DNA of 64,000 bases from Sphingomonas astaxanthinifaciens DSM 22298. GTDB lineage: Bacteria; Pseudomonadota; Alphaproteobacteria; Sphingomonadales; Sphingomonadaceae. The stretch spans positions 2,080,485 through 2,144,484 of the forward strand of contig NZ_JONN01000001.1 in the NCBI RefSeq assembly GCF_000711715.1. Reading direction: 5' to 3'. Numbering within the stretch: the stretch's first letter is position 1; each line of letters begins with the position of its first letter. The position numbers and the translations under genes are program-made. Shown here in pieces: positions 16,660-26,522 of the stretch. The notes under the pieces are model-generated. The model saw only the letters and a list, made by a program, of their open reading frames with translations. It ran no database searches and had not been told where the DNA came from.

Positions 16660-16916
16660 TGCGCGATACCTACCAATAACATTCCGAAGGCTGTCAGCCC
16701 GGCGGCCAACCACGGCACAGCCCGAAGCAGCATCAGTTCATGTGCGAAGCGAACCGGATCATCCGACCGAAGAATGGTCTGCTCGCCGAAAAGCCCGCGG
16801 ACATGGAAGCGAAGCTCCCCGCTAGCGTCGGCCTTCGCGGCAGCGTCGTGCGCACGAAGCGCAATGAGGGCGAGACAGGCAATGCCGCCGAGGACGATTC
16901 CGATGAGGGCTGTCAC
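16656..16916 (-). CDS. small two-helix membrane protein between pccB and mce
   Basis: This 86-residue protein has two predicted membrane segments: near the N-terminus ([18 protein letters not shown]) and at the C-terminus ([20 protein letters not shown]), with a polar loop between. I chose GTG at 16916 because it overlaps the pccB stop by 4 bp (GTGA); a GTG at 16943 would overlap more. Its stop overlaps the mce start by 4 bp. The family is not recognised. A different small membrane gene sits in the pccA operon at 43993. Confidence 0.65.
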
Positions 16917-18445
16917 AGCGGGATGTTGTCGTGCTTCTTCCACGGGTTTTCGAGCTGCTTGTCGCGCAGCTTGCGGAGGCCCAGTGCGACTTTGCGGCGG
17001 GTTTCGCGCGGCTGGATGACGTCGTCGATGAAGCCCATGCTCGCCGCTACGAACGGGTTGGCGAAGCGCTCTTCATATTCCTTGGTGCGCTGGGCGATGG
17101 CGTCCGCGTCGCCGATGTCCTTGCGGAAGATGATCTCGACCGCGCCCTTGGCCCCCATCACCGCGATTTCGGCGGTCGGCCAAGCGTAGTTCAAGTCCCC
17201 GCGCAAGTGCTTGGACGCCATGACGTCATAGGCCCCGCCATAGGCCTTGCGGGTGATGACGGTGATCTTGGGCACGGTCGCCTCGGCATAAGCGAAGAGC
17301 AGTTTCGCACCGTGCTTGATGATGCCGTTATGCTCCTGGCCCACGCCGGGCAGGAAGCCCGGCACGTCGACGAAAGTCAGTAGCGGAATCTCGAAGGCGT
17401 CGCAAAAGCGGACGAAGCGCGCGGCTTTCTTTGACGAATTGATGTCGAGCACCCCCGCCAGCACCATCGGCTGGTTGGCGACGACCCCGACCGTGCGGCC
17501 CTCGATCCGGCAGAAGCCGATGATGATGTTGCCGGCGTGGGCGGGCTGGAGCTCGAAGAAGTCGCCCTCGTCGGCGACCTTCCGGATCAGCTCGTGCATG
17601 TCGTAGGGCTGGTTTGCGCTGGGCGGGATCAGCGTATCGAGGCTGTCCTCGGTCCGGTCCCACGCATCCTCGGTCGGGCGCTCGGGGACGGGCACCCGGT
17701 TCGACAGCGGAAGGAAGTCGAAGAACTCGCGTGCGCCCAGCAGCGCGTCGATGTCGTTCTCGAAGGCGAGGTCGGCGACGCTGCTCTTGGTCGTGTGGGT
17801 GATCGCGCCGCCCAGTTCCTCCTGGGTGACGACCTCGTTGGTGACGGTCTTCACCACGTCGGGGCCGGTGACGAACATGTAGCTCGAATCCTTCACCATG
17901 AAGATGAAGTCGGTCATCGCGGGCGAATAGACCGCGCCGCCCGCGCAGGGACCCATGATCAGGGAAAGCTGCGGCACGACGCCGCTGGCGAGCACGTTCC
18001 TTTGGAACACCTCGGCATAGCCCGCGAGGCTGGCGACGCCTTCCTGGATGCGCGCGCCGCCGCTGTCATTGAGCCCGATGACCGGCGCGCCGACCTTCAT
18101 CGCCGCGTCCATGATCTTGCAGATCTTCTGCGCATGGCGCTCGGAGAGCGAGCCGCCGAACACGGTGAAGTCCTGCGCGAAGACATAGACCAGCCGGCCG
18201 TTGATCGTGCCCGAGCCGGTCACGACGCCGTCGCCCGGAAAGCGCTGCTCGGCCATGCCGAACTCGGTCGCATTATGTTCGACGAAAGCGTCGACTTCCT
18301 CGAAGCTGCCCTCGTCGAGCAGCACGGCGAGCCGCTCGCGCGCGGTCAGGCGGCCCTTGGCATGCTGGGCGTCGATGCGCTTGCTGCCCCCGCCCATCCG
18401 GGCGGCGTCGCGGCGGCGTTCGAGTTCGGCGATGGTGCTGCTCAT
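16913..18445 (-). CDS. pccB: acyl-CoA carboxylase beta subunit (propionyl-CoA carboxylase)
   Basis: This 510-residue carboxyltransferase moves carboxyl from biotin to propionyl-CoA. Typical segments are [24 protein letters not shown] ([17 protein letters not shown]), the oxyanion motif [12 protein letters not shown] and [17 protein letters not shown], and the C-terminal [11 protein letters not shown]. Length and adjacency to methylmalonyl-CoA epimerase favour propionyl-CoA as substrate. The alpha subunit is at 44204. The 5' end lies 253 bp from the divergent glycan cassette. No obvious pathway regulator gene is adjacent. Confidence 0.95.
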
Positions 18446-18530
18446 GGGGTTCGCCTTTCGCGCCGCCCCGTCGGCGCGTCAACTCGCCGCCAATCCGCGA
18501 GGGTGAGATCATAACATAAGTTACAGGGCC

Positions 18531-18556
18531 GGAACCATCGCTTCGGGCGAACCGTT
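18531..18556 (+). promoter_or_regulatory. EcfG-type general stress response promoter
   Basis: GGAAC at 18531-18535 and CGTT at 18553-18556 are separated by exactly 17 bases. This is an exact match to the alphaproteobacterial EcfG (sigma-EcfG) consensus GGAAC-N16/17-CGTT. It points toward the gene starting at 18699, giving a 5' leader of roughly 130-135 nt. I inspected the other main intergenic spacers by eye and found no other exact match. The assignment rests on sequence and known consensus only. Confidence 0.8.
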
Positions 18557-18698
18557 GAGCGTCATGAACTGCGGGGTGGGAGGAGATTTGCCAGCCCGCG
18601 GCCTCACCTGTGCCGGCGCGCCCGCCTGTGGCTGCGGACAAGCTCGGCACCCGTTGTCTGTCTGATTCAATTACTCTTTCGAGAGAGGTTCACCACGC

Positions 18699-21071
18699 AT
18701 GTTCGAGAAAGTCGGCGTTCACGACCAGGGTCATCCCAATGCTCCGTCGTCCTCGAACAAGCCAACCACCCTTTTGTGCTTCTCGCACCTTCGCTGGGAC
18801 TTCGTGTTCCAGCGCCCGCAGCACCTGATGTGCCGCTTCGCCAAGGACATGCCGGTGACGGTGTGGGAAGAGCCGGTCCCGGCCGCGGCGGGAGAAGGGC
18901 CTTCGCTCGACATCCGCGCGGCGAAGGATTGCGAGGGCGTCACGATCGTCACGCCGCATCTCCCCGAGGGCCTCGAAGTCGACGCGCAGCGCACCGTCTT
19001 GAAGGGCCTGCTCGACAATTATGCCGCGACGCTCGAGGGGCGGCTGATCCGCTGGTATTACACCCCGATGATGCTGCCGTTCTCGCGGCATCTCGACTCG
19101 GTCGCAACCGTCTATGACTGCATGGACGAGCTGTCGGCCTTCCGCTTCGCCCCGGCCGAGCTGCTCGATCTCGAGCGCGAACTGCTCGACGCGGCCGACG
19201 TCGTCTTCACCGGCGGCTATTCGCTCTACGAGGCGAAGAAGAAGCGGCACGGCAACGTCCATCCCTTCCCCTCGTCGGTCGACCGCGCGCATTTCGGCGC
19301 CGCCCGCGCCGGCATCGCCGACCCCGCCGACCAGGCCGGGATCGCCCGCCCGCGCTTCGGCTTCTACGGCGTGATCGACGAGCGGCTCGACATCGAGCTG
19401 CTCGACAAGGTCGCCGAGGCCCGTCCCGACTGGCAGCTCATCATGGTCGGCCCGGTGGTGAAGATCAGCCACGACGACCTGCCCAAGCGGCCCAACATCC
19501 ATTATCTCGGCGGCAAGACCTACGACGAGCTCCCGGCCTATCTCGGCAACTGGGACGTGGCGATGATGCCCTTCGCCATCAACGACGCGACGCGCTTCAT
19601 CTCGCCGACCAAGACCCCCGAATATCTCGCCGCCGCCAAGCCGGTGGTCTCGACCCCGATCCGCGACGTCAAGCGCCATTACGAGAAGCTCTCGGGCGTG
19701 ATGATCGCCGGGACGGCCGAGCAATTCGTCGAGGCCTGCGAGCGCGCGCTGTCGCTCACCCGCGGCGACAATGAGTGGCTGGCCGAGGTCGACCTCGCGC
19801 TCGCCGACATGAGCTGGGACACCACCCAGGCGCGCATGGCGGCACTGCTCGCCGAGGTGACCGAGCAGGGCCAGAAGATCGAGCGCCCGGCCTTCGGCCA
19901 GGGCCACTACACCCACAGCAGGAACCGCAAGTACGACTATCTGGTGGTCGGCTGTGGCTTCGCCGGTTCGGTCCTCGCCGAGCGTCTCGCCAGCCAGCAT
20001 GGCGCCCGCGTGCTGATGATCGACAAGCGCGATCACGTCGGCGGCAACGCCTATGACGAATATGACAAGAACGGCATCCTCTACCACAAGTACGGGCCGC
20101 ACATCTTCCACGCGAACTCGGACGAGATCGTCAGCTATCTCTCGCAGTTCACCCAGTGGCGTCCCTACGAGCACCGGGTGCTGGCCAGCGTCCGCGACCA
20201 GTTGGTGCCGATTCCGATCAATCGCACCACGCTCAACAAGCTGTTCGACGCCAACCTCACCACCGACGAAGAGGCCGCCGCCTTCCTCGCCGCGCGGGCC
20301 GAGCCGGTGGCCGACATCCGCACCAGCGAGGACGTGGTCGTCAACGCCGTCGGTCGCGAGCTCTACGAGCTCTTCTTCCAGGGCTATACCCGCAAGCAGT
20401 GGGGCCTCGACCCGAGCGAGCTCGACAAGCTGGTGACGGCGCGGATCCCGACCCGGACCAACACCGACGACCGCTATTTCACCGACACCCACCAGATCAT
20501 GCCGCTCGAGGGCTATACCCGGATGTTCGAGCGGATGCTCGACCACCCGCTGATCGACAAGTCGCTCGGCACCGACTTCCGCGAGGTGCGCAACGACATC
20601 GACGCGGCGCACATCATCTACACCGGCCCGATCGACGAATATTTCGACTGGAAGTTCGGCAAGCTGCCCTACCGGTCCTTGCGCTTCGTCCACTCGACGA
20701 TCGACAAGGAGTGGTTCCAGGAAGTGGGAACGGTCAACTATCCCTCGACCGACATCCCCTACACCCGGATCAGCGAATACAAGCACCTCACCGGGCAGGA
20801 GCATCCGCAGACCTCGATCACGCTCGAATATCCGAGCGCCGAGGGCGATCCTTATTATCCGATCCCCCGGCCCGAGAACCAGGCCCTGTTCAAGCGCTAC
20901 GAGGCGCTGGCGGACTCGACCCCCGGCGTGACCTTCGTCGGCCGGCTGGCGACCTACCGCTATTACAACATGGACCAGATCGTCGGGCAGGCGCTCGCGA
21001 CCTTCCGGCGGATGGACGAGGCCCGCGCGCGTATCGGTGCGAGTAGCCAGGAACTGCGCCTGGCCATCTAG
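18699..21071 (+). CDS. glycosyltransferase fused to UDP-galactopyranose mutase
   Basis: This 790-residue protein has two parts. Residues about 20-395 form a GT-B glycosyltransferase like TuaH/GT4 enzymes: WDFVFQRPQHLMCRFA, a central YDCMDELSAFR and the sugar-nucleotide site SPTKTPEYLAAAKPVV. From about residue 409 comes a Glf-type FAD enzyme that converts UDP-galactopyranose to UDP-galactofuranose: DYLVVGCGFAGSVLAE, DHVGGNAYDE and YTRKQWGLDP. Galactofuranose is a surface glycan sugar in bacteria. The fusion may channel UDP-Galf to a linked transferase (inference). It heads a cassette downstream of an EcfG promoter. Confidence 0.9.
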   Translation: MFEKVGVHDQGHPNAPSSSNKPTTLLCFSHLRWDFVFQRPQHLMCRFAKDMPVTVWEEPVPAAAGEGPSLDIRAAKDCEGVTIVTPHLPEGLEVDAQRTVLKGLLDNYAATLEGRLIRWYYTPMMLPFSRHLDSVATVYDCMDELSAFRFAPAELLDLERELLDAADVVFTGGYSLYEAKKKRHGNVHPFPSSVDRAHFGAARAGIADPADQAGIARPRFGFYGVIDERLDIELLDKVAEARPDWQLIMVGPVVKISHDDLPKRPNIHYLGGKTYDELPAYLGNWDVAMMPFAINDATRFISPTKTPEYLAAAKPVVSTPIRDVKRHYEKLSGVMIAGTAEQFVEACERALSLTRGDNEWLAEVDLALADMSWDTTQARMAALLAEVTEQGQKIERPAFGQGHYTHSRNRKYDYLVVGCGFAGSVLAERLASQHGARVLMIDKRDHVGGNAYDEYDKNGILYHKYGPHIFHANSDEIVSYLSQFTQWRPYEHRVLASVRDQLVPIPINRTTLNKLFDANLTTDEEAAAFLAARAEPVADIRTSEDVVVNAVGRELYELFFQGYTRKQWGLDPSELDKLVTARIPTRTNTDDRYFTDTHQIMPLEGYTRMFERMLDHPLIDKSLGTDFREVRNDIDAAHIIYTGPIDEYFDWKFGKLPYRSLRFVHSTIDKEWFQEVGTVNYPSTDIPYTRISEYKHLTGQEHPQTSITLEYPSAEGDPYYPIPRPENQALFKRYEALADSTPGVTFVGRLATYRYYNMDQIVGQALATFRRMDEARARIGASSQELRLAI

Positions 21072-21076
21072 GCCGG

Positions 21077-23236
21077 GTGCAGCGCCTCTCGATGGCCAGG
21101 CCCATTTCTCCGCTTGAGCTGTGGGGCGGAGTCGAATGCTCGGTCGTGCGCGTGCACGACCAGCATCGCGACCAGCTGGTCGAAACGGGTCACCAGACGC
21201 GCCTGTCGGACATCGACGCGCTCGCCGACCTCGGCATTCGCGCGGTCCGCTACCCGATCCTGTGGGAGAAAGTGGCGGCGGCGGGTGCCGGCACGCTCGA
21301 CTTCGCCTGGCACGACGAGCGGCTCCGCCGGCTGCGGGATCGCGGGGTCGAGGTCATCGCGGGCCTCCTCCATCACGGCACCGGCCCGGAGGGGGTCGAG
21401 CTCACCGATCCCGACTTTCCCGAGAAGTTCGCCGCCTTCGCCGGCGAGGTCGCCCGGCGCTACCCGTGGATCACCCGCTGGACCCCGGTCAACGAGCCCT
21501 TCACCACCGCCCGCTTCTCCTATCTGTACGGCATCTGGCATCCGCACCGCACCAGCTTCGACGAGGCGCTGCGGGTGCTGGTCGCCGAGATCGAGGCGAC
21601 CGCGCTCGCCATGGCGGCGATCCGGGCGATCAATCCCGCCGCTCTGCTGGTCGCGACCGAGGACCTCGGCAAGACCTTCTCGACCGCCGAGCTCGCCTAT
21701 CAGGCGGCCCATGAGAACCACCGCCGCTGGCTGACCTTCGATTTGATGACCGGACGGGTCGGTCCGAAGCACCCGTTTTACAACTGGCTGGTCAAGGCGG
21801 GAGTCGCGCCCGAGCGGCTGGCCGCGCTGCGTGAGGGCGGCGCGCGGCCCGACCTGCTGGCGATCGACCATTATCTAACCAGCGAGCGCTATCTCGACCA
21901 CCGGATTGAGAAATATCCCGGCGTCGAACCCGGGGACAATGGCCGGCACCGCTATGTCGACGTCGAGGCGGTGCGGGTCCCGCATCTTCGGTCCCGGCTG
22001 GGTCCAAAACGCCGCCTGATGGAGGCGTGGCGCCGCTACCGCCTGCCGATGGTGGTCGGCGAGGTCCATCACGGCTGCAGCCGCGAGGAGCAGACCCGCT
22101 GGCTGGCGCAGGTCTGGCGCGAGACCGAGGAGGCGCGGGCCGAGGGGGCCGACGTTCGGGCGATCACCCTCTGGGCGTTGTTCGGCGCGGTCGACTGGCG
22201 TTCGCTCATGACCCGCCGCGAGGGCAACTACGACACCGGGGCCTTCGAGACCCGCGGGCCCGAGGCGCGGCCGACGCTCGTCGCCAAGGCTGCCGCGACC
22301 CTCGCCGAGACCGGCCATTTCGACCATCCGGCGCTCGACGGCGCCCCCTGGTGGCGGCGGCCGGGCCGGGTCTATCGTCCGGGCGCAGGACTAAGGGAGG
22401 GCCCCATTGCCGGGCGTCCCCTGCTCGTGACCGGTCGCGGCGGAACGCTTGGGCAGGCCTTCGCGCGCCTCTGTCATCATCGCGGCCTCGCGCATGTCCT
22501 GACCGACCGCCGCCGCCTCGACATCACCGATGCCACGCAGATCGAGCAGGTCCTCGACGCGGTCGCGCCCTGGGCGCTCATCAACACCGCCGGCTTCGTC
22601 CGCGTCCCCGAGGCCGAGCAACAGCCCGAGGATTGCTTCCGGATCAACGCCACCGGCCCCGAGCTGCTCGCCGCGGCCTGCCGCCGGCGGGGCATCCCCT
22701 TCGTGACCTTCTCGTCGGACCTCGTGTTCGACGGCCAGCTCGGCCGGGCCTATGTCGAGCCCGATCCGACCAGCCCCGCGACGGTCTACGGCCACAGCAA
22801 GGCGGCGGCCGAGGAGCGGGTGCTGGCACTCGACCCGGAGGCGCTGATCGTCCGCACCAGCGCCTTTTTCGGGCCGTGGGATCGCGCCAATTTCCTCGCC
22901 ACCACGCTCGCCAGCCTCCACCGCGGCGAGGAAGTGGCGGCGAGCGACAACGCCTTTGTCACCCCGACCTACGTTCCCGACCTCGTCCATGCGACGCTCG
23001 ACCTGCTGCTCGATGGCGAGCACGGACTGTGGCACCTCGCCAATGCCGGCAGCATCAGCTGGCACGGCCTCGCCCGCGAGATCGCCGACCGGCGGGGAAT
23101 TGCGGCGCGGCGGATCGTCGACAGTGGGGGACCCCGGACCGACACGAGCCTCGCGACCAGCCGCGGCCAGATCCTCCGCCCGCTCGACCATGCCCTCGAC
23201 GATTATGTCCGCTTCGCCGAGGCGGTGCTAGGCTGA
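21077..23236 (+). CDS. GH1-like glycosidase domain fused to RmlD-like reductase
   Basis: This 719-residue protein has an N-terminal GH1-like (beta/alpha)8 domain. TPVNEPF near 135 fits the acid/base motif. The putative nucleophile lies in VVGEVHHG near 326, unlike the usual TENG. From about residue 449 comes an RmlD/SDR domain: VTGRGGTLGQAF, SSDLVFDG and YGHSKAAAE with the Tyr-Lys pair near 570. RmlD makes dTDP-L-rhamnose in its usual setting. Whether the GH1 part hydrolyses or transfers sugar is unknown. GTG at 21077 is used; ATG at 21092 is the alternative, and neither has a strong ribosome site. Confidence 0.85.
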   Translation: MQRLSMARPISPLELWGGVECSVVRVHDQHRDQLVETGHQTRLSDIDALADLGIRAVRYPILWEKVAAAGAGTLDFAWHDERLRRLRDRGVEVIAGLLHHGTGPEGVELTDPDFPEKFAAFAGEVARRYPWITRWTPVNEPFTTARFSYLYGIWHPHRTSFDEALRVLVAEIEATALAMAAIRAINPAALLVATEDLGKTFSTAELAYQAAHENHRRWLTFDLMTGRVGPKHPFYNWLVKAGVAPERLAALREGGARPDLLAIDHYLTSERYLDHRIEKYPGVEPGDNGRHRYVDVEAVRVPHLRSRLGPKRRLMEAWRRYRLPMVVGEVHHGCSREEQTRWLAQVWRETEEARAEGADVRAITLWALFGAVDWRSLMTRREGNYDTGAFETRGPEARPTLVAKAAATLAETGHFDHPALDGAPWWRRPGRVYRPGAGLREGPIAGRPLLVTGRGGTLGQAFARLCHHRGLAHVLTDRRRLDITDATQIEQVLDAVAPWALINTAGFVRVPEAEQQPEDCFRINATGPELLAAACRRRGIPFVTFSSDLVFDGQLGRAYVEPDPTSPATVYGHSKAAAEERVLALDPEALIVRTSAFFGPWDRANFLATTLASLHRGEEVAASDNAFVTPTYVPDLVHATLDLLLDGEHGLWHLANAGSISWHGLAREIADRRGIAARRIVDSGGPRTDTSLATSRGQILRPLDHALDDYVRFAEAVLG

Positions 23237-23279
23237 GCCGCGTTGGACCCGCCGGGCGGCTCGTGCTTTGAACGAGCGC

Positions 23280-24059
23280 ATGGAACGAGATTCGCCCGCC
23301 GCCGGCCGCTGGCCGCAGCGCCTCTACCTGGTCCGTCACGGGCAGAGCCAGGGCAACGTCGCGCGCGACAAATCGGAGGCGGCGGGCCTCGCCACCATCG
23401 GCATCGACATGCGCGATGTCGACGTGCCTTTGTCCGAGCTCGGCCATCGCCAGGCCGCCGCGACCGGCCGCTGGTTCGCGAGCCGGCCCGACGACGAACG
23501 GCCCGAGGTGATCCTTTCCTCGCCCTATCTGCGCGCGCGCCAGACCGCGCTCGCCATCTGCGAAGCCGGCGGACTGGCCGGCGGGCGGGCCCGGACCGTG
23601 GTCGACGAGCGATTGCGCGAGCGCGAATTCGGGGTGTTCGACGGCCTCACCACGCTCGGCATCCGCCAGCGTTTCCCCGAGGAAGCCGCGCATCGCGCCC
23701 GACTCGGCAAATTCTACCACCGCCCGCCGGGGGGCGAGAGCTGGGCCGACGTCATCCTGCGCCTGCGCTCGGCGATGAACTCGATCAACCTCCAGTATAG
23801 CGGCCGGCGGGTGCTGATCGTCTGCCACCAGGTCGTAGTGCTGTGCATGCGCTACATCCTCGAGGAGCTGGACGAGGCGCAGATCCTCGCGATCGACAAG
23901 TCGTCCGAGGTGCTGAACTGCGGCATCTGCGCGTTCGACTTCGACGGCAGCCAGCTCGAGGCCGCGCCACGGCTCGCCCTGTGGAACCAGGCCGCCCCGC
24001 TCGAGGAAGAGGGGGCTCCGGTCACCGCCGCTCCCGACCGGATGACCGGCAGCCGGTGA
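23280..24059 (+). CDS. histidine phosphatase family protein
   Basis: This 259-residue protein has the phosphoglycerate mutase-like RHG motif, LVRHGQSQGN (His20), an SSPYLRARQTA Arg motif and the second His in IVCHQVVV. Members remove phosphate from sugars, nucleotides or proteins. The second catalytic His is followed by Gln rather than the more common Gly. The ATG at 23280 is preferred to an upstream TTG. The substrate is unknown. It is the third gene of the EcfG-linked cassette and overlaps the next gene by 4 bp. Confidence 0.88.
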   Translation: MERDSPAAGRWPQRLYLVRHGQSQGNVARDKSEAAGLATIGIDMRDVDVPLSELGHRQAAATGRWFASRPDDERPEVILSSPYLRARQTALAICEAGGLAGGRARTVVDERLREREFGVFDGLTTLGIRQRFPEEAAHRARLGKFYHRPPGGESWADVILRLRSAMNSINLQYSGRRVLIVCHQVVVLCMRYILEELDEAQILAIDKSSEVLNCGICAFDFDGSQLEAAPRLALWNQAAPLEEEGAPVTAAPDRMTGSR

Positions 24060-24937
24060 ACGCGCCTGCTCCACTGGACGCGGAGCTCCTGGCCCGGCAC
24101 CCGCTTCCCCCGGTCGGCGCGGGCGACAAGGACGAGCGCGGCAGCATTCTCGTGATCGCCGGCAGCCGCGAGGTCGCGGGCGCGGCGCTGCTCACCGCCC
24201 TGGGCGCGATGCGGGCCGGCGCAGGACGGCTCCAGATCGCCACCGTCACCAGCGCCGCCATGGGCCTGTCGGTGTCGATGCCCGAAGCGATGGTGCGCGG
24301 CGTCGACGAGGGCGAGGATGGCGGCTTCGCGCCGGCCTCGACCGAGGCGTTGACCGAGCTTGCCAAGAAGGCGAGCGTGGTGGTCGCCGGACCGGGCATC
24401 CGCGGCAACGGCTCGACCGCTGCGCTGGCCGCCGCGCTTGCCGAGCGCTGCCCGCGCCTCGTCCTCGACGCCGCCATGCTCCACGCGCTTCCCCAGCGCG
24501 AACGGCAACTGGCCGATAAGAAGGAGCCCGCGGTGCTCCTTCCCCATGCCGGCGAAATGGCCAGCCTCTTGGGTCGCGACGAAGTCGAGGTCGAGGCCGA
24601 TCCCGTTGGTGCGGGCCGTCGCTGCGCCGAGCGCTACGGTGCGCTGACCCTCGTCAAGGGCGTCGCCAGCCATGTCGTCAGTCCCGAGGGCGACGTCTTC
24701 CGCTACCAAGGCGGCGGGCCCGGCCTCGGAGTCTCGGGATCGGGCGACACGCTGGCCGGGATTGTCGGCGGGCTGCTGGCGCGCGGCGGCGATCCGCTGT
24801 CGGCCCTGTTATGGGCGGTCTGGTGCCATGGCGAGGCCGGCCGCCGGCTGGGACAACGCGTCGGCACCCTCGGCTATCTCGCCCGCGAAATTCCGGACGA
24901 AGTGCCCGCCATCCTGCGCGACGGCGGCCAGCTCTAG
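24056..24937 (+). CDS. nnrD: ADP/ATP-dependent NAD(P)H-hydrate dehydratase
   Basis: This 293-residue ribokinase-like enzyme repairs hydrated NAD(P)H. Typical motifs are GDKDERGSILVIAGS at the N-terminus, PHAGEMASLLGR and the catalytic GVSGSGDTLAGIV near residue 227. The YjeF-type epimerase domain that is often fused N-terminally is absent. The GTG at 24056 overlaps the histidine phosphatase stop by 4 bp (GTGA), so translation is likely coupled. It is the last gene of the cassette and ends 3 bp from the convergent pyruvate kinase. Confidence 0.93.
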   Translation: MNAPAPLDAELLARHPLPPVGAGDKDERGSILVIAGSREVAGAALLTALGAMRAGAGRLQIATVTSAAMGLSVSMPEAMVRGVDEGEDGGFAPASTEALTELAKKASVVVAGPGIRGNGSTAALAAALAERCPRLVLDAAMLHALPQRERQLADKKEPAVLLPHAGEMASLLGRDEVEVEADPVGAGRRCAERYGALTLVKGVASHVVSPEGDVFRYQGGGPGLGVSGSGDTLAGIVGGLLARGGDPLSALLWAVWCHGEAGRRLGQRVGTLGYLAREIPDEVPAILRDGGQL

Positions 24938-24940
24938 CCT

Positions 24941-26407
24941 TTAGCTGACCCCGTAATCGTCGAGCTCGTCGCCGGCGACGCGGACGACGTGGAGCACGTT
25001 GGTCGAGCCCGACGTGCCGAACGGCACGCCCGCCAGCACGATGATCCGGTCGCCGCCATCGGCAAGCTTGTGGCGCAGGACCATCCGCTTGGCCTTGCCG
25101 ACCATCTCCTCGAAGCTGGCGACGTCGCGGGTGTGGACCGCGTGGACGCCCCAAACGAGGCCCATCCGCCGGGCGACGGTCTTGCTCGCGGTCATCACCA
25201 AGAGCGGCACCGGCCCGCGCTCGCGGGCGATGCGGCGCGCGGTCGAGCCGGTCGAGGTGTAGCAGACCATCGCGGCGACACTGACCGTATTGGCGATCTT
25301 GCCCGCGCTCTCGGCGAGCGCGTCGGCGGTGGTCGGCTCGGCCGGAGTGGCGGTGAAATGTACCCGCGCGGCATAATTGGGATCGGCTTCGACCGAGCGT
25401 CCGATCCGGTCCATCATCGCCACCGCCTCGACCGGGAACTGGCCCGCGGCGCTCTCGGCCGAGAGCATCACCGCATCGGCGCCGTCGTAGATGGCATTGG
25501 CGACGTCGCTCACCTCGGCCCGGGTCGGGGTCGGCGAGGTAATCATGCTTTCGAGCATCTGGGTCGCGACCACCACCGGCTTGCCGAGCTCACGGGCGCG
25601 GGCGACGATCATCTTCTGCAAGGGCGGCACGGCTTCGGCGGGAAGCTCGACCCCGAGGTCGCCGCGCGCCACCATCACCGCATCGGCATGCTCGAGGATC
25701 CCCTCGAGCCGCTCGATCGCGGCGGGCTTCTCGATCTTGACCATCAGCGCGGCCTTGTCGCCGATCAGTTCGCGCGCCTCGATCACGTCCTCGGCCCGCT
25801 GGACGAACGACAAAGCGATGAAGTCGGCCTTCTGCGACAGCGCGAACTGGAGGTCGTCGCGATCCTTCTCGGTCAGCGCGGGGATCGGGACCAGCACGTC
25901 GGGGACGTTAACCCCCTTGTTGTTGCTGACCTTGCCGCCGACCTCGACGATGGTCTCGATCCGGCCCGGCGCGACCGCGGCGGCGCGCAGCCGGATCTTG
26001 CCGTCGTCGATCAGCAGCTGGTCGCCCTCGCGAACCGCGGCGAACAATTCGGGGTGGGGGAGCTCAACCCGCTCGGCGGTCCCCGGCTCGGCGCTGTCGT
26101 CGAGCTGGAAGCGCGCACCCGTCTCGAGCATCGCGGTGCCGCCGGCGAACTTGCCGACCCGGAGCTTGGGGCCCTGGAGGTCGAACAGGATCGTCGTCGG
26201 CCGCTTATATTCTTCCTCGAGGCTGCGGATGGTCTCGACCAGCTGCGCCTTCGCCGCCTGGTCGCCATGGCTCATGTTGATGCGGAAGGCGTCGGCCCCG
26301 CAATGCATCAGCTTGGCGATCATCTCCCGGGTGCCCGAGGCGGGCCCGAGGGTGGCGAGAATGCGGACCTTGCGTTCGCGGGGACCGACCGGCTTCGACA
26401 CGTTCAT
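24941..26407 (-). CDS. pyk: pyruvate kinase
   Basis: This 488-residue enzyme turns phosphoenolpyruvate and ADP into pyruvate and ATP. The family signature appears as [20 protein letters not shown] with the catalytic Lys, followed by [13 protein letters not shown] and [20 protein letters not shown]. The N-terminal [12 protein letters not shown] and INMSHGD are also typical. ATG at 26407 is preceded by AGGAG but at a short distance; ATG at 26431 would add 8 residues. No gene forms an obvious operon with it. It is divergent from gapR across 115 bp. Confidence 0.96.
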
Positions 26408-26522
26408 CAACTCCTGTTGCCCCGCCGCCATAGCGGCCGACGCCCTTTCTTCAACCGCTTGGCGGGGTCGGCCCACTGGCCTAAGGCGCGCGCCGCATAC
26501 CTATTCACCGGGAGAGGGAATC

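What the first reader, a model, noticed from the sequence alone, without database searches (positions are those of the whole stretch)
18531..24937. EcfG-driven four-gene cassette with two rare fusions, a candidate stress-glycan system
An exact EcfG promoter precedes a co-directional run of a GT-UGM fusion, a GH1-RmlD fusion, a histidine phosphatase and an NAD(P)H-hydrate dehydratase. The last two overlap by 4 bp. The first two are 5 bp apart and the second and third about 43 bp apart. UGM and RmlD belong to activated deoxy- or furanose-sugar synthesis, and GT and GH1 domains transfer or cut sugars, so an EcfG-controlled surface glycan or glycolipid is a plausible product. I know of no described pathway with this composition.
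Basis: partly seen in the sequence, partly recalled or inferred. Interest (0 to 1): 0.78.

Follow-up and report, generated by a model that had tools for sequence, protein, structure and literature searches.

The report
Stress-switched furanose-sugar gene module
A set of genes that probably builds an unusual galactose-containing molecule sits, in this and many related bacteria, behind the DNA signal used by their general stress switch, which suggests a stress-linked sugar molecule that could now be looked for.

Summary
The four genes and the GGAAC-N17-CGTT site are real. One exact site in 64 kb is no evidence (1.7 expected), but comparison makes it strong. Within 200 bp upstream of the same glycosyltransferase (GT) gene, the EcfG motif GGAAC-N17/18-GTT occurs in 22 of 22 loci of the genus, 14 of 17 from other Sphingomonadaceae and 9 of 11 from other Alphaproteobacteria, against 0 of 4 non-alphas. 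Loci fetched afterwards gave 18 of 31 (0.23 expected) and 0 of 5 mutase-only controls. It is absent in 4 of 4 relatives lacking the GT.

The conserved unit is GT-UGM (UDP-galactopyranose mutase) plus a GH1-like partner; RmlD is optional. All 24 genomes with GH1-RmlD (20) or only its GH1 half (4), of 249 Sphingomonadaceae, also carry GT-UGM. The module also occurs in Deinococcus, Gloeothece and Caballeronia. The histidine phosphatase and hydrate dehydratase are a separate pair, found at the same site in relatives without glycan genes.

Best reading: a general-stress-response module making a galactofuranose-containing glycoconjugate in the cytosol. Regulation is well supported; the product is inferred. 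No paper found links EcfG with this mutase.

The parts
18531..18556 (+). EcfG (general stress response) promoter-like site GGAAC-N17-CGTT, the distal of two sites seen in close relatives
   Evidence: Exact match; aligned and intact in the nearest relative L066; the motif is found upstream of the homologous gene in 22 of 22 genus loci
18634..18657 (+). Apparently decayed proximal EcfG site (CGGAC ... CGTTGT); relatives L051, L052, L053 and L065 keep an intact site at about -67
   Evidence: Alignment of upstream regions and site positions; coordinates read
18699..21071 (+). GT-UGM fusion: GT4-like glycosyltransferase (about residues 1-390) and UDP-galactopyranose mutase (about 411-770)
   Evidence: PF13692 1.7e-9, PF03275 2.8e-79; TIGR00031 390 bits, above its cut-off; best solved relative 3hdq, 543 bits
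21077..23236 (+). GH1-RmlD fusion: GH1-like barrel (about residues 10-415) and RmlD-like NDP-sugar reductase (about 448-719); start may be the ATG at 21092
23268..24059 (+). Histidine phosphatase (branch 1), start TTG 23268 or ATG 23280; neighbouring pair, not a constant part of the module
   Evidence: PF00300 125 bits; present without the glycan genes in relatives (L055-L058)
24056..24937 (+). Stand-alone NAD(P)H-hydrate dehydratase-like protein; a second, diverged homologue lies elsewhere in the genome
   Evidence: TIGR00196 174.5 bits, above cut-off 129.85; second match at G000:C1:780234
16913..18445 (-). pccB-like carboxyltransferase, divergent left border of the site in the relatives whose left border could be read
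   Evidence: PF01039 666 bits; synteny
24941..26476 (-). Pyruvate kinase, convergent right border of the site
   Evidence: PF00224 355 bits; synteny

Best explanation
A general-stress-response module that makes a galactofuranose-containing glycoconjugate, most likely a lipid-linked or small glycoside, in the cytosol. Under stress PhyR takes NepR off EcfG (established for the system, recalled), and EcfG RNA polymerase transcribes from the 18531 site (strongly inferred). The UGM half turns UDP-galactopyranose into UDP-galactofuranose (by family). The fused GT half transfers that sugar, or one tied to it, to an unknown acceptor (inferred). The GH1-like half trims, transfers or recycles sugar on the product inside the cell, since it is fused to a reductase of a cytosolic, NAD(P)-using family and shows no signal peptide by eye (inferred). 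The RmlD half reduces an NDP-4-keto sugar to give a second donor where it is present (inferred). The histidine phosphatase and hydrate dehydratase are a separate pair beside pyk that the stress operon now probably reads into (inferred).
For: Motif within 200 bp upstream of the GT start: 22 of 22 genus loci, 14 of 17 other Sphingomonadaceae, 9 of 11 other Alphaproteobacteria, 0 of 4 non-alphas; dinucleotide shuffles gave means of 0.16, 0.12, 0.09 and 0.01. GGAAC-N17/18-GTT was the commonest 5+3 dyad, in 23 of 29 windows outside the genus; the runner-up had 7. Loci fetched afterwards: 18 of 31, 0.23 expected; mutase-only controls 0 of 5. No motif where the GT is missing, 0 of 4, nor before operon-internal GH1 genes, 0 of 11, 0 of 2 and 0 of 5 in the three alpha groups. 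GSR locus present. All 24 genomes with GH1-RmlD or its GH1 half also have GT-UGM, 4.7 expected; 18 of 18 genera, 5.8 expected. Module in other phyla: L081, L083. UGM passes TIGR00031. Azospirillum and Skermanella add an ABC exporter.
Against: No expression, sugar or enzyme data. The GT half has no solved relative even as a profile, so its donor is unknown. 13 of 31 held-out GT loci lack an exact motif within 200 bp, 3 of 17 and 2 of 11 in the earlier groups, and only 8 of 26 GH1 genes that start a transcript in other Sphingomonadaceae have one within 130 bp. The same search gave one match in a non-alpha (D. ficus L093, 1 of 8). On the opposite strand the motif occurs in 1 of 22, 4 of 17 and 1 of 11 windows; several of the 17 lie between divergent GT and GH1 genes. 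The histidine phosphatase co-occurs with GT-UGM in 23 of 32 genomes (6.3 expected) and 18 of 23 genera (7.4 expected), which speaks for some link between the two modules. None of these co-occurrence counts is corrected for descent beyond the genus.
Confidence: 0.6

Rival explanations
1. All four genes form one pathway: the phosphatase and the hydrate dehydratase-like kinase fold act on a phosphorylated sugar intermediate of the same product.
For: Tight packing with a 4-bp overlap; GH1-RmlD, phosphatase and dehydratase lie in this order in 9 of the 11 genus genomes with GH1-RmlD, one of them with a gap of about 0.9 kb; phosphatase and GT-UGM co-occur in 23 of 32 genomes; in L155 the pair lies beside the module in another genus.
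Against: The phosphatase occurs at the same pccB-pyk site without GT, UGM or GH1 in four relatives, with the dehydratase in three. Of 30 phosphatase loci, the window included, only one (L175, 16-base spacer at -6) has the motif within 200 bp of the phosphatase start. The pair was not seen in the module loci read in other phyla. The dehydratase passes the NAD(P)H-hydrate dehydratase cut-off.
Confidence: 0.2
2. The module makes a soluble stress solute or storage glycoside rather than a surface or membrane glycan; the GH1 half reclaims the sugar after stress.
For: No clear membrane-spanning stretch by a crude hydropathy scan of the four proteins (highest 19-residue mean 1.67) and no exporter, flippase or polymerase directly beside these genes (for relatives). 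GH43 replaces GH1-RmlD in five genus genomes, with a second GH1-like protein in each.
Against: Azospirillum and Skermanella carry an ABC exporter in the run, and Rhizobium and Sinorhizobium add further and larger GTs, which fits a larger, exported glycan. UDP-galactofuranose is classically used for glycans (recalled).
Confidence: 0.25
3. The promoter site is a chance match and the genes are constitutive.
For: 1.73 exact matches are expected in 64 kb. The site lies 168 bp upstream, beyond the 100 bp within which sites gather in S. melonis Fr1 (PMC6599016, section 6 read).
Against: The whole comparative result; near relatives carry the same distal site or both sites.
Confidence: 0.05
4. GT-UGM and GH1 belong to an ordinary O-antigen or capsule locus that happens to be stress-controlled.
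For: UGM and RmlD families are common in such loci (recalled); one Caballeronia copy lies near capsule and ABC transporter genes.
Against: The genes stand between central metabolic genes in the genus; the unit recurs as two or three genes on plasmids in other phyla and classes. Five mutase-only loci lack the motif.
Confidence: 0.12

Closest known systems
EcfG (sigma-EcfG / RpoE2 / SigT) general stress regulon of Alphaproteobacteria
   Same: Motif GGAAC-N17-20-GTT as derived in S. melonis Fr1 (PMC6599016: passages, and section 6); PhyR-NepR-ECF sigma locus present here. A 'Glycosyltransferase' (#1750), 'Glycosidases' (#1751) and an 'Exopolysaccharide biosynthesis protein' (#3509) are EcfG-dependent there.
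   Different: 'mutase' has 0 occurrences in that main text; whether #1750/#1751 are related to these genes was not checked. Supplementary tables could not be read.
UDP-galactopyranose mutase (Glf), closest solved chain 3hdq (from D. radiodurans, organism recalled)
   Same: 543 bits, far above the next solved UGM at 294; passes TIGR00031.
   Different: Fused to a GT at its N-terminus and placed behind an EcfG motif.
GH1 beta-glucosidases (Thermotoga maritima type)
   Different: About 14% identity; Glu329 lies in an E-V/A-H motif, not the classical TENG (recalled); fused to an NDP-sugar reductase, so presumably cytosolic.
dTDP-4-dehydrorhamnose reductase (RmlD)
   Same: Best solved relative 1vl0, 104 bits; Rossmann glycines, Tyr571 and Lys575 invariant.
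   Different: Below the RmlD equivalog cut-off; the genome has another RmlD-like gene directly after RmlB.
TuaH-type teichuronic acid glycosyltransferases
   Same: Weak similarity over residues 114-376, 78.8 bits.
   Different: Far below the family cut-off of 550; no solved relative found by profile.

Membership tests
EcfG regulon | GGAAC-N16-20-GTT promoter conserved upstream of orthologues | tested here: met
   not exact in 13 of 31 held-out loci
EcfG regulon | Genome encodes PhyR, NepR and EcfG | tested here: met
   NepR above cut-off; PhyR NF006623 371 bits, above cut-off; the adjacent ECF sigma factor (best NF009199 192 bits, below its cut-off 219) is called EcfG by its position
EcfG regulon | Transcript depends on ecfG | not testable with these tools
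   Needs RNA from a deletion strain
UDP-galactopyranose mutase | Score above the curated equivalog cut-off | tested here: met
   TIGR00031 390.2 against 303.75 bits
UDP-galactopyranose mutase | Converts UDP-Galp to UDP-Galf | not testable with these tools
   No assay
Glycoside hydrolase family 1 | Family profile and fold | tested here: met
Glycoside hydrolase family 1 | Two catalytic glutamates | tested here: met
   Glu140 (NEP) and Glu329 invariant in 20 sequences; their roles are inferred by position, distance not measured
dTDP-4-dehydrorhamnose reductase (RmlD) | Score above the curated equivalog cut-off | tested here: not met
   TIGR01214 193.8 against 224.05 bits
TuaH glycosyltransferase | Score above the curated equivalog cut-off | tested here: not met
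   NF047676 78.8 against 550 bits
NAD(P)H-hydrate dehydratase (YjeF C-terminal) | Score above the curated cut-off | tested here: met
   TIGR00196 174.5 against 129.85 bits
Histidine phosphatase branch 1 | Family profile and RHG motif | tested here: met
   PF00300 125.4 bits; RHG read in the translation

The most novel reading that the evidence does not exclude
Alphaproteobacteria share a dedicated general-stress glycan: EcfG switches on a GT-UGM enzyme that makes a galactofuranose-containing lipid or glycoside, finished by a cytosolic GH1-like transglycosylase fused to its own sugar-nucleotide reductase. The module moves on plasmids and chromids between stress-hardy lineages and comes under the local stress regulator in each.
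Probability: 0.4. Interest if true: 0.82.

Novelty: new variant of a known kind. Interest (0 to 1): 0.62.

Why it matters
The general stress response of Alphaproteobacteria protects against several stresses, but much of its output is unassigned. A conserved target that points to one sugar, galactofuranose, gives a concrete chemical to look for, a small deletion to make and a reporter to test in genetically tractable species. The GH1-reductase fusion is also an odd enzyme pairing that places a glycosidase fold inside the cytosol, next to sugar-nucleotide synthesis.

Tried and rejected
Rejected: that the single exact site in the window is itself evidence. Rejected: that the fusions are very rare. 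Rejected: four genes as one obligatory unit. Led nowhere: paper searches for UGM with GH1 and RmlD (none), EcfG with UGM (none), UGM with general stress response (nine papers; judged from titles and abstract starts only, none on the alphaproteobacterial response), UGM with desiccation (seven, judged likewise), galactofuranose with Deinococcus or Sphingomonas (listings only), RpoE2 with UGM (none of the 15 listed of 52 papers holds the mutase term), bifunctional Galf enzymes (10 of 38 listed), EcfG with glf (none of the seven listed papers holds both). Main-text term searches in the R. etli and Sphingopyxis EcfG papers found no 'glycosyl', 'mutase' or 'polysaccharide'; passages on RpoE2 promoters in the S. 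meliloti TSS paper did not bear on these genes. The profile of the GT half against solved structures gave nothing. The sigma-70 and terminator scan found no + strand promoter or terminator in 18400-25100. The fold rows cover mainly residues 9-416.

Corrections found on checking: the scan of GT-less loci used over-long pccB frames and missed part of the gap in two loci, and the upstream test of the phosphatase was oriented wrongly for minus-strand loci; both were redone correctly with the same outcome. Four of the 24 'GH1-RmlD' genomes match over the GH1 half only, and one (G290) in two pieces on two contigs.

L192 and L193 are near copies and were both counted. The genus loci share descent and are not independent. 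Gene starts were extrapolated from alignments, not from annotated start codons. Held-out loci include one genus genome (G256) and second GT loci from genomes already used. The five-genome GH43 count rests on Pfam for four and similarity for the fifth.

Full report
Observation. The window encodes, all on the + strand, a GT-UGM fusion (18699-21071), a GH1-RmlD fusion (21077-23236), a histidine phosphatase (23268 or 23280 to 24059) and a stand-alone NAD(P)H-hydrate dehydratase-like protein (24056-24937). They sit between a divergent pccB-like and a convergent pyruvate kinase gene. A GGAAC-N17-CGTT site starts at 18531.

Is the promoter real? I read 22 genus loci with a usable GT start: 21 of the 22 GT-bearing genus genomes and one named metagenome assembly (L031). 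All 22 have GGAAC-N17/18-GTT within 200 bp upstream of the GT start; dinucleotide shuffles gave a mean of 0.16 and at most 2. In 20 of 22 it lies within 130 bp, at -63 to -72. The two exceptions are the window and its nearest relative L066, where it lies at about -170. Four near relatives (L051, L052, L053, L065) carry both sites, and the window's proximal copy looks decayed. Four genus genomes without the GT show no motif within 500 bp upstream of the phosphatase. These loci share descent, so I looked wider. Other Sphingomonadaceae, with the genes in different places and often divergent, gave 14 of 17; other alpha records and genomes, mainly Rhizobiales and Azospirillaceae, gave 9 of 11 (7 of 11 within 130 bp, 0.15 expected); non-alphas gave 0 of 4. 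EcfG is described as exclusive to Alphaproteobacteria (PMC3892343, abstract start in the listing). When every 5+3-base dyad was counted without a prior motif in the 29 windows outside the genus, GGAAC..GTT came first with 23; the runner-up had 7. GT loci fetched after this rule was fixed gave 18 of 31 against 0.23 expected, and five mutase-only loci gave none. GH1 genes that start their own transcript in other Sphingomonadaceae gave 8 of 26 against 0.1 expected, while GH1 genes inside the operon gave 0 of 11, 0 of 2 and 0 of 5 in the three alpha groups. Against this, 13 of the 31 held-out loci have no exact motif, one of eight GH1 genes in non-alphas (D. ficus) matched, and the opposite strand matched in 1 of 22, 4 of 17 and 1 of 11 windows. 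The genome has a PhyR-NepR-ECF sigma locus with the same motif 115 bp upstream of nepR. I take EcfG control as very likely though unproven by expression.

What is the unit? Among 249 Sphingomonadaceae genomes, 49 match GT-UGM and 24 match GH1-RmlD (20 over both halves, 4 over the GH1 half only). All 24 are among the 49 (4.7 expected; at genus level 18 of 18, 5.8 expected), although the genes are often not adjacent. GT, UGM and GH1-RmlD lie close together on plasmids of Deinococcus aetherius, Gloeothece PCC 7822, Sphingobium, Sphingomonas hankookensis and Caballeronia. Mesorhizobium and Ensifer have GT, UGM and a GH1-like protein without a full RmlD half. Runella has GT and GH1-RmlD; no UGM lies in the stretch read, which is cut at the start of the record. 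Many GH1-RmlD copies have no GT beside them: D. deserti, D. ficus and Deinococcus QL22 and, L082, L126, L127, L129-L135, L152 and L153. In five genus genomes the slot holds a GH43 protein instead, with a second GH1-like protein in each; the one in L052 is 46% identical to the GH partner in Skermanella. Azospirillum and Skermanella add an ABC exporter; rhizobial plasmids add further GTs, one of them a 1080-residue GT-oxidoreductase fusion.

The phosphatase and the dehydratase. Of 37 genus genomes, 22 have the GT or UGM, 11 have GH1-RmlD and 25 have the phosphatase. The phosphatase directly or closely follows GH1-RmlD in 10 of 11, and the dehydratase follows it in 9 of those 10. But in L055-L058 the phosphatase sits between pccB and pyk with no glycan gene (with the dehydratase in three; in L057 only a fragment was matched). 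In other genera the pair recurs, in L164-L166 and L181 beside pyk, and of 30 phosphatase loci, the window included, one (L175) has the motif within 200 bp of the start. So the pair looks like a separate neighbour. Against a complete separation, the phosphatase co-occurs with GT-UGM in 23 of 32 genomes (6.3 expected) and 18 of 23 genera (7.4 expected), and a nicotinate phosphoribosyltransferase gene lies near either module in several loci, so a shared stress or NAD-repair theme remains possible.

Literature. In S. melonis Fr1 the derived EcfG motif is GGAAC-N17-20-GTT and sites gather within 100 bp of starts; EcfG-dependent genes there include glycosyltransferases and an exopolysaccharide gene, but the main text has no 'mutase' (PMC6599016, passages and section 6). 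No paper found in the library links EcfG with UGM or describes this combination. Most subscription papers are not in the library and supplements could not be searched.

Verdict. What looks new is a widely conserved, probably stress-controlled GT-UGM module with a GH1-type partner.

Noticed in passing
L051, L052, L053, L054, L075: In five genus genomes a GH43 protein plus a second GH1-like protein (with a GFECS-type N-terminus where read) replace GH1-RmlD between UGM and the phosphatase; the GH1-like gene is on the opposite strand in four and on the same strand in L075.
   Followed up: partly
L155 10154-11044, L086 1288-2592, L095 1398-2702, L138 2171-3058, L184 547-1434, L190 2351-3238: A nicotinate phosphoribosyltransferase gene recurs near GT-UGM or near the phosphatase-dehydratase pair in several genera, which hints at NAD salvage and repair as a shared neighbourhood theme.
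   Followed up: partly
L192, L193, L195 (Sinorhizobium and Rhizobium plasmids): GT-UGM has an EcfG-like motif about 40 bp upstream of its inferred start and lies beside further GTs, in L195 a 1080-aa GT-oxidoreductase fusion; in L193 and L195 a PhnA-like gene, and in L195 a ferritin-like gene, lie nearby.
   Followed up: partly
L088 7097-9138 (S. daechungensis plasmid): GH1-RmlD is annotated in two pieces and the GT matches in two frames, next to a pccB that also matches in pieces, so this copy looks decayed or carries sequencing errors.
   Followed up: no
L064 5402-5818: The phosphatase of G023 matches in two pieces in different frames, a likely frameshift in an otherwise intact cluster.
   Followed up: no
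window 18634-18657: Turnover between two tandem EcfG sites: the window keeps the distal one and seems to have lost the proximal one, while related genomes keep both or only the proximal one.
   Followed up: yes
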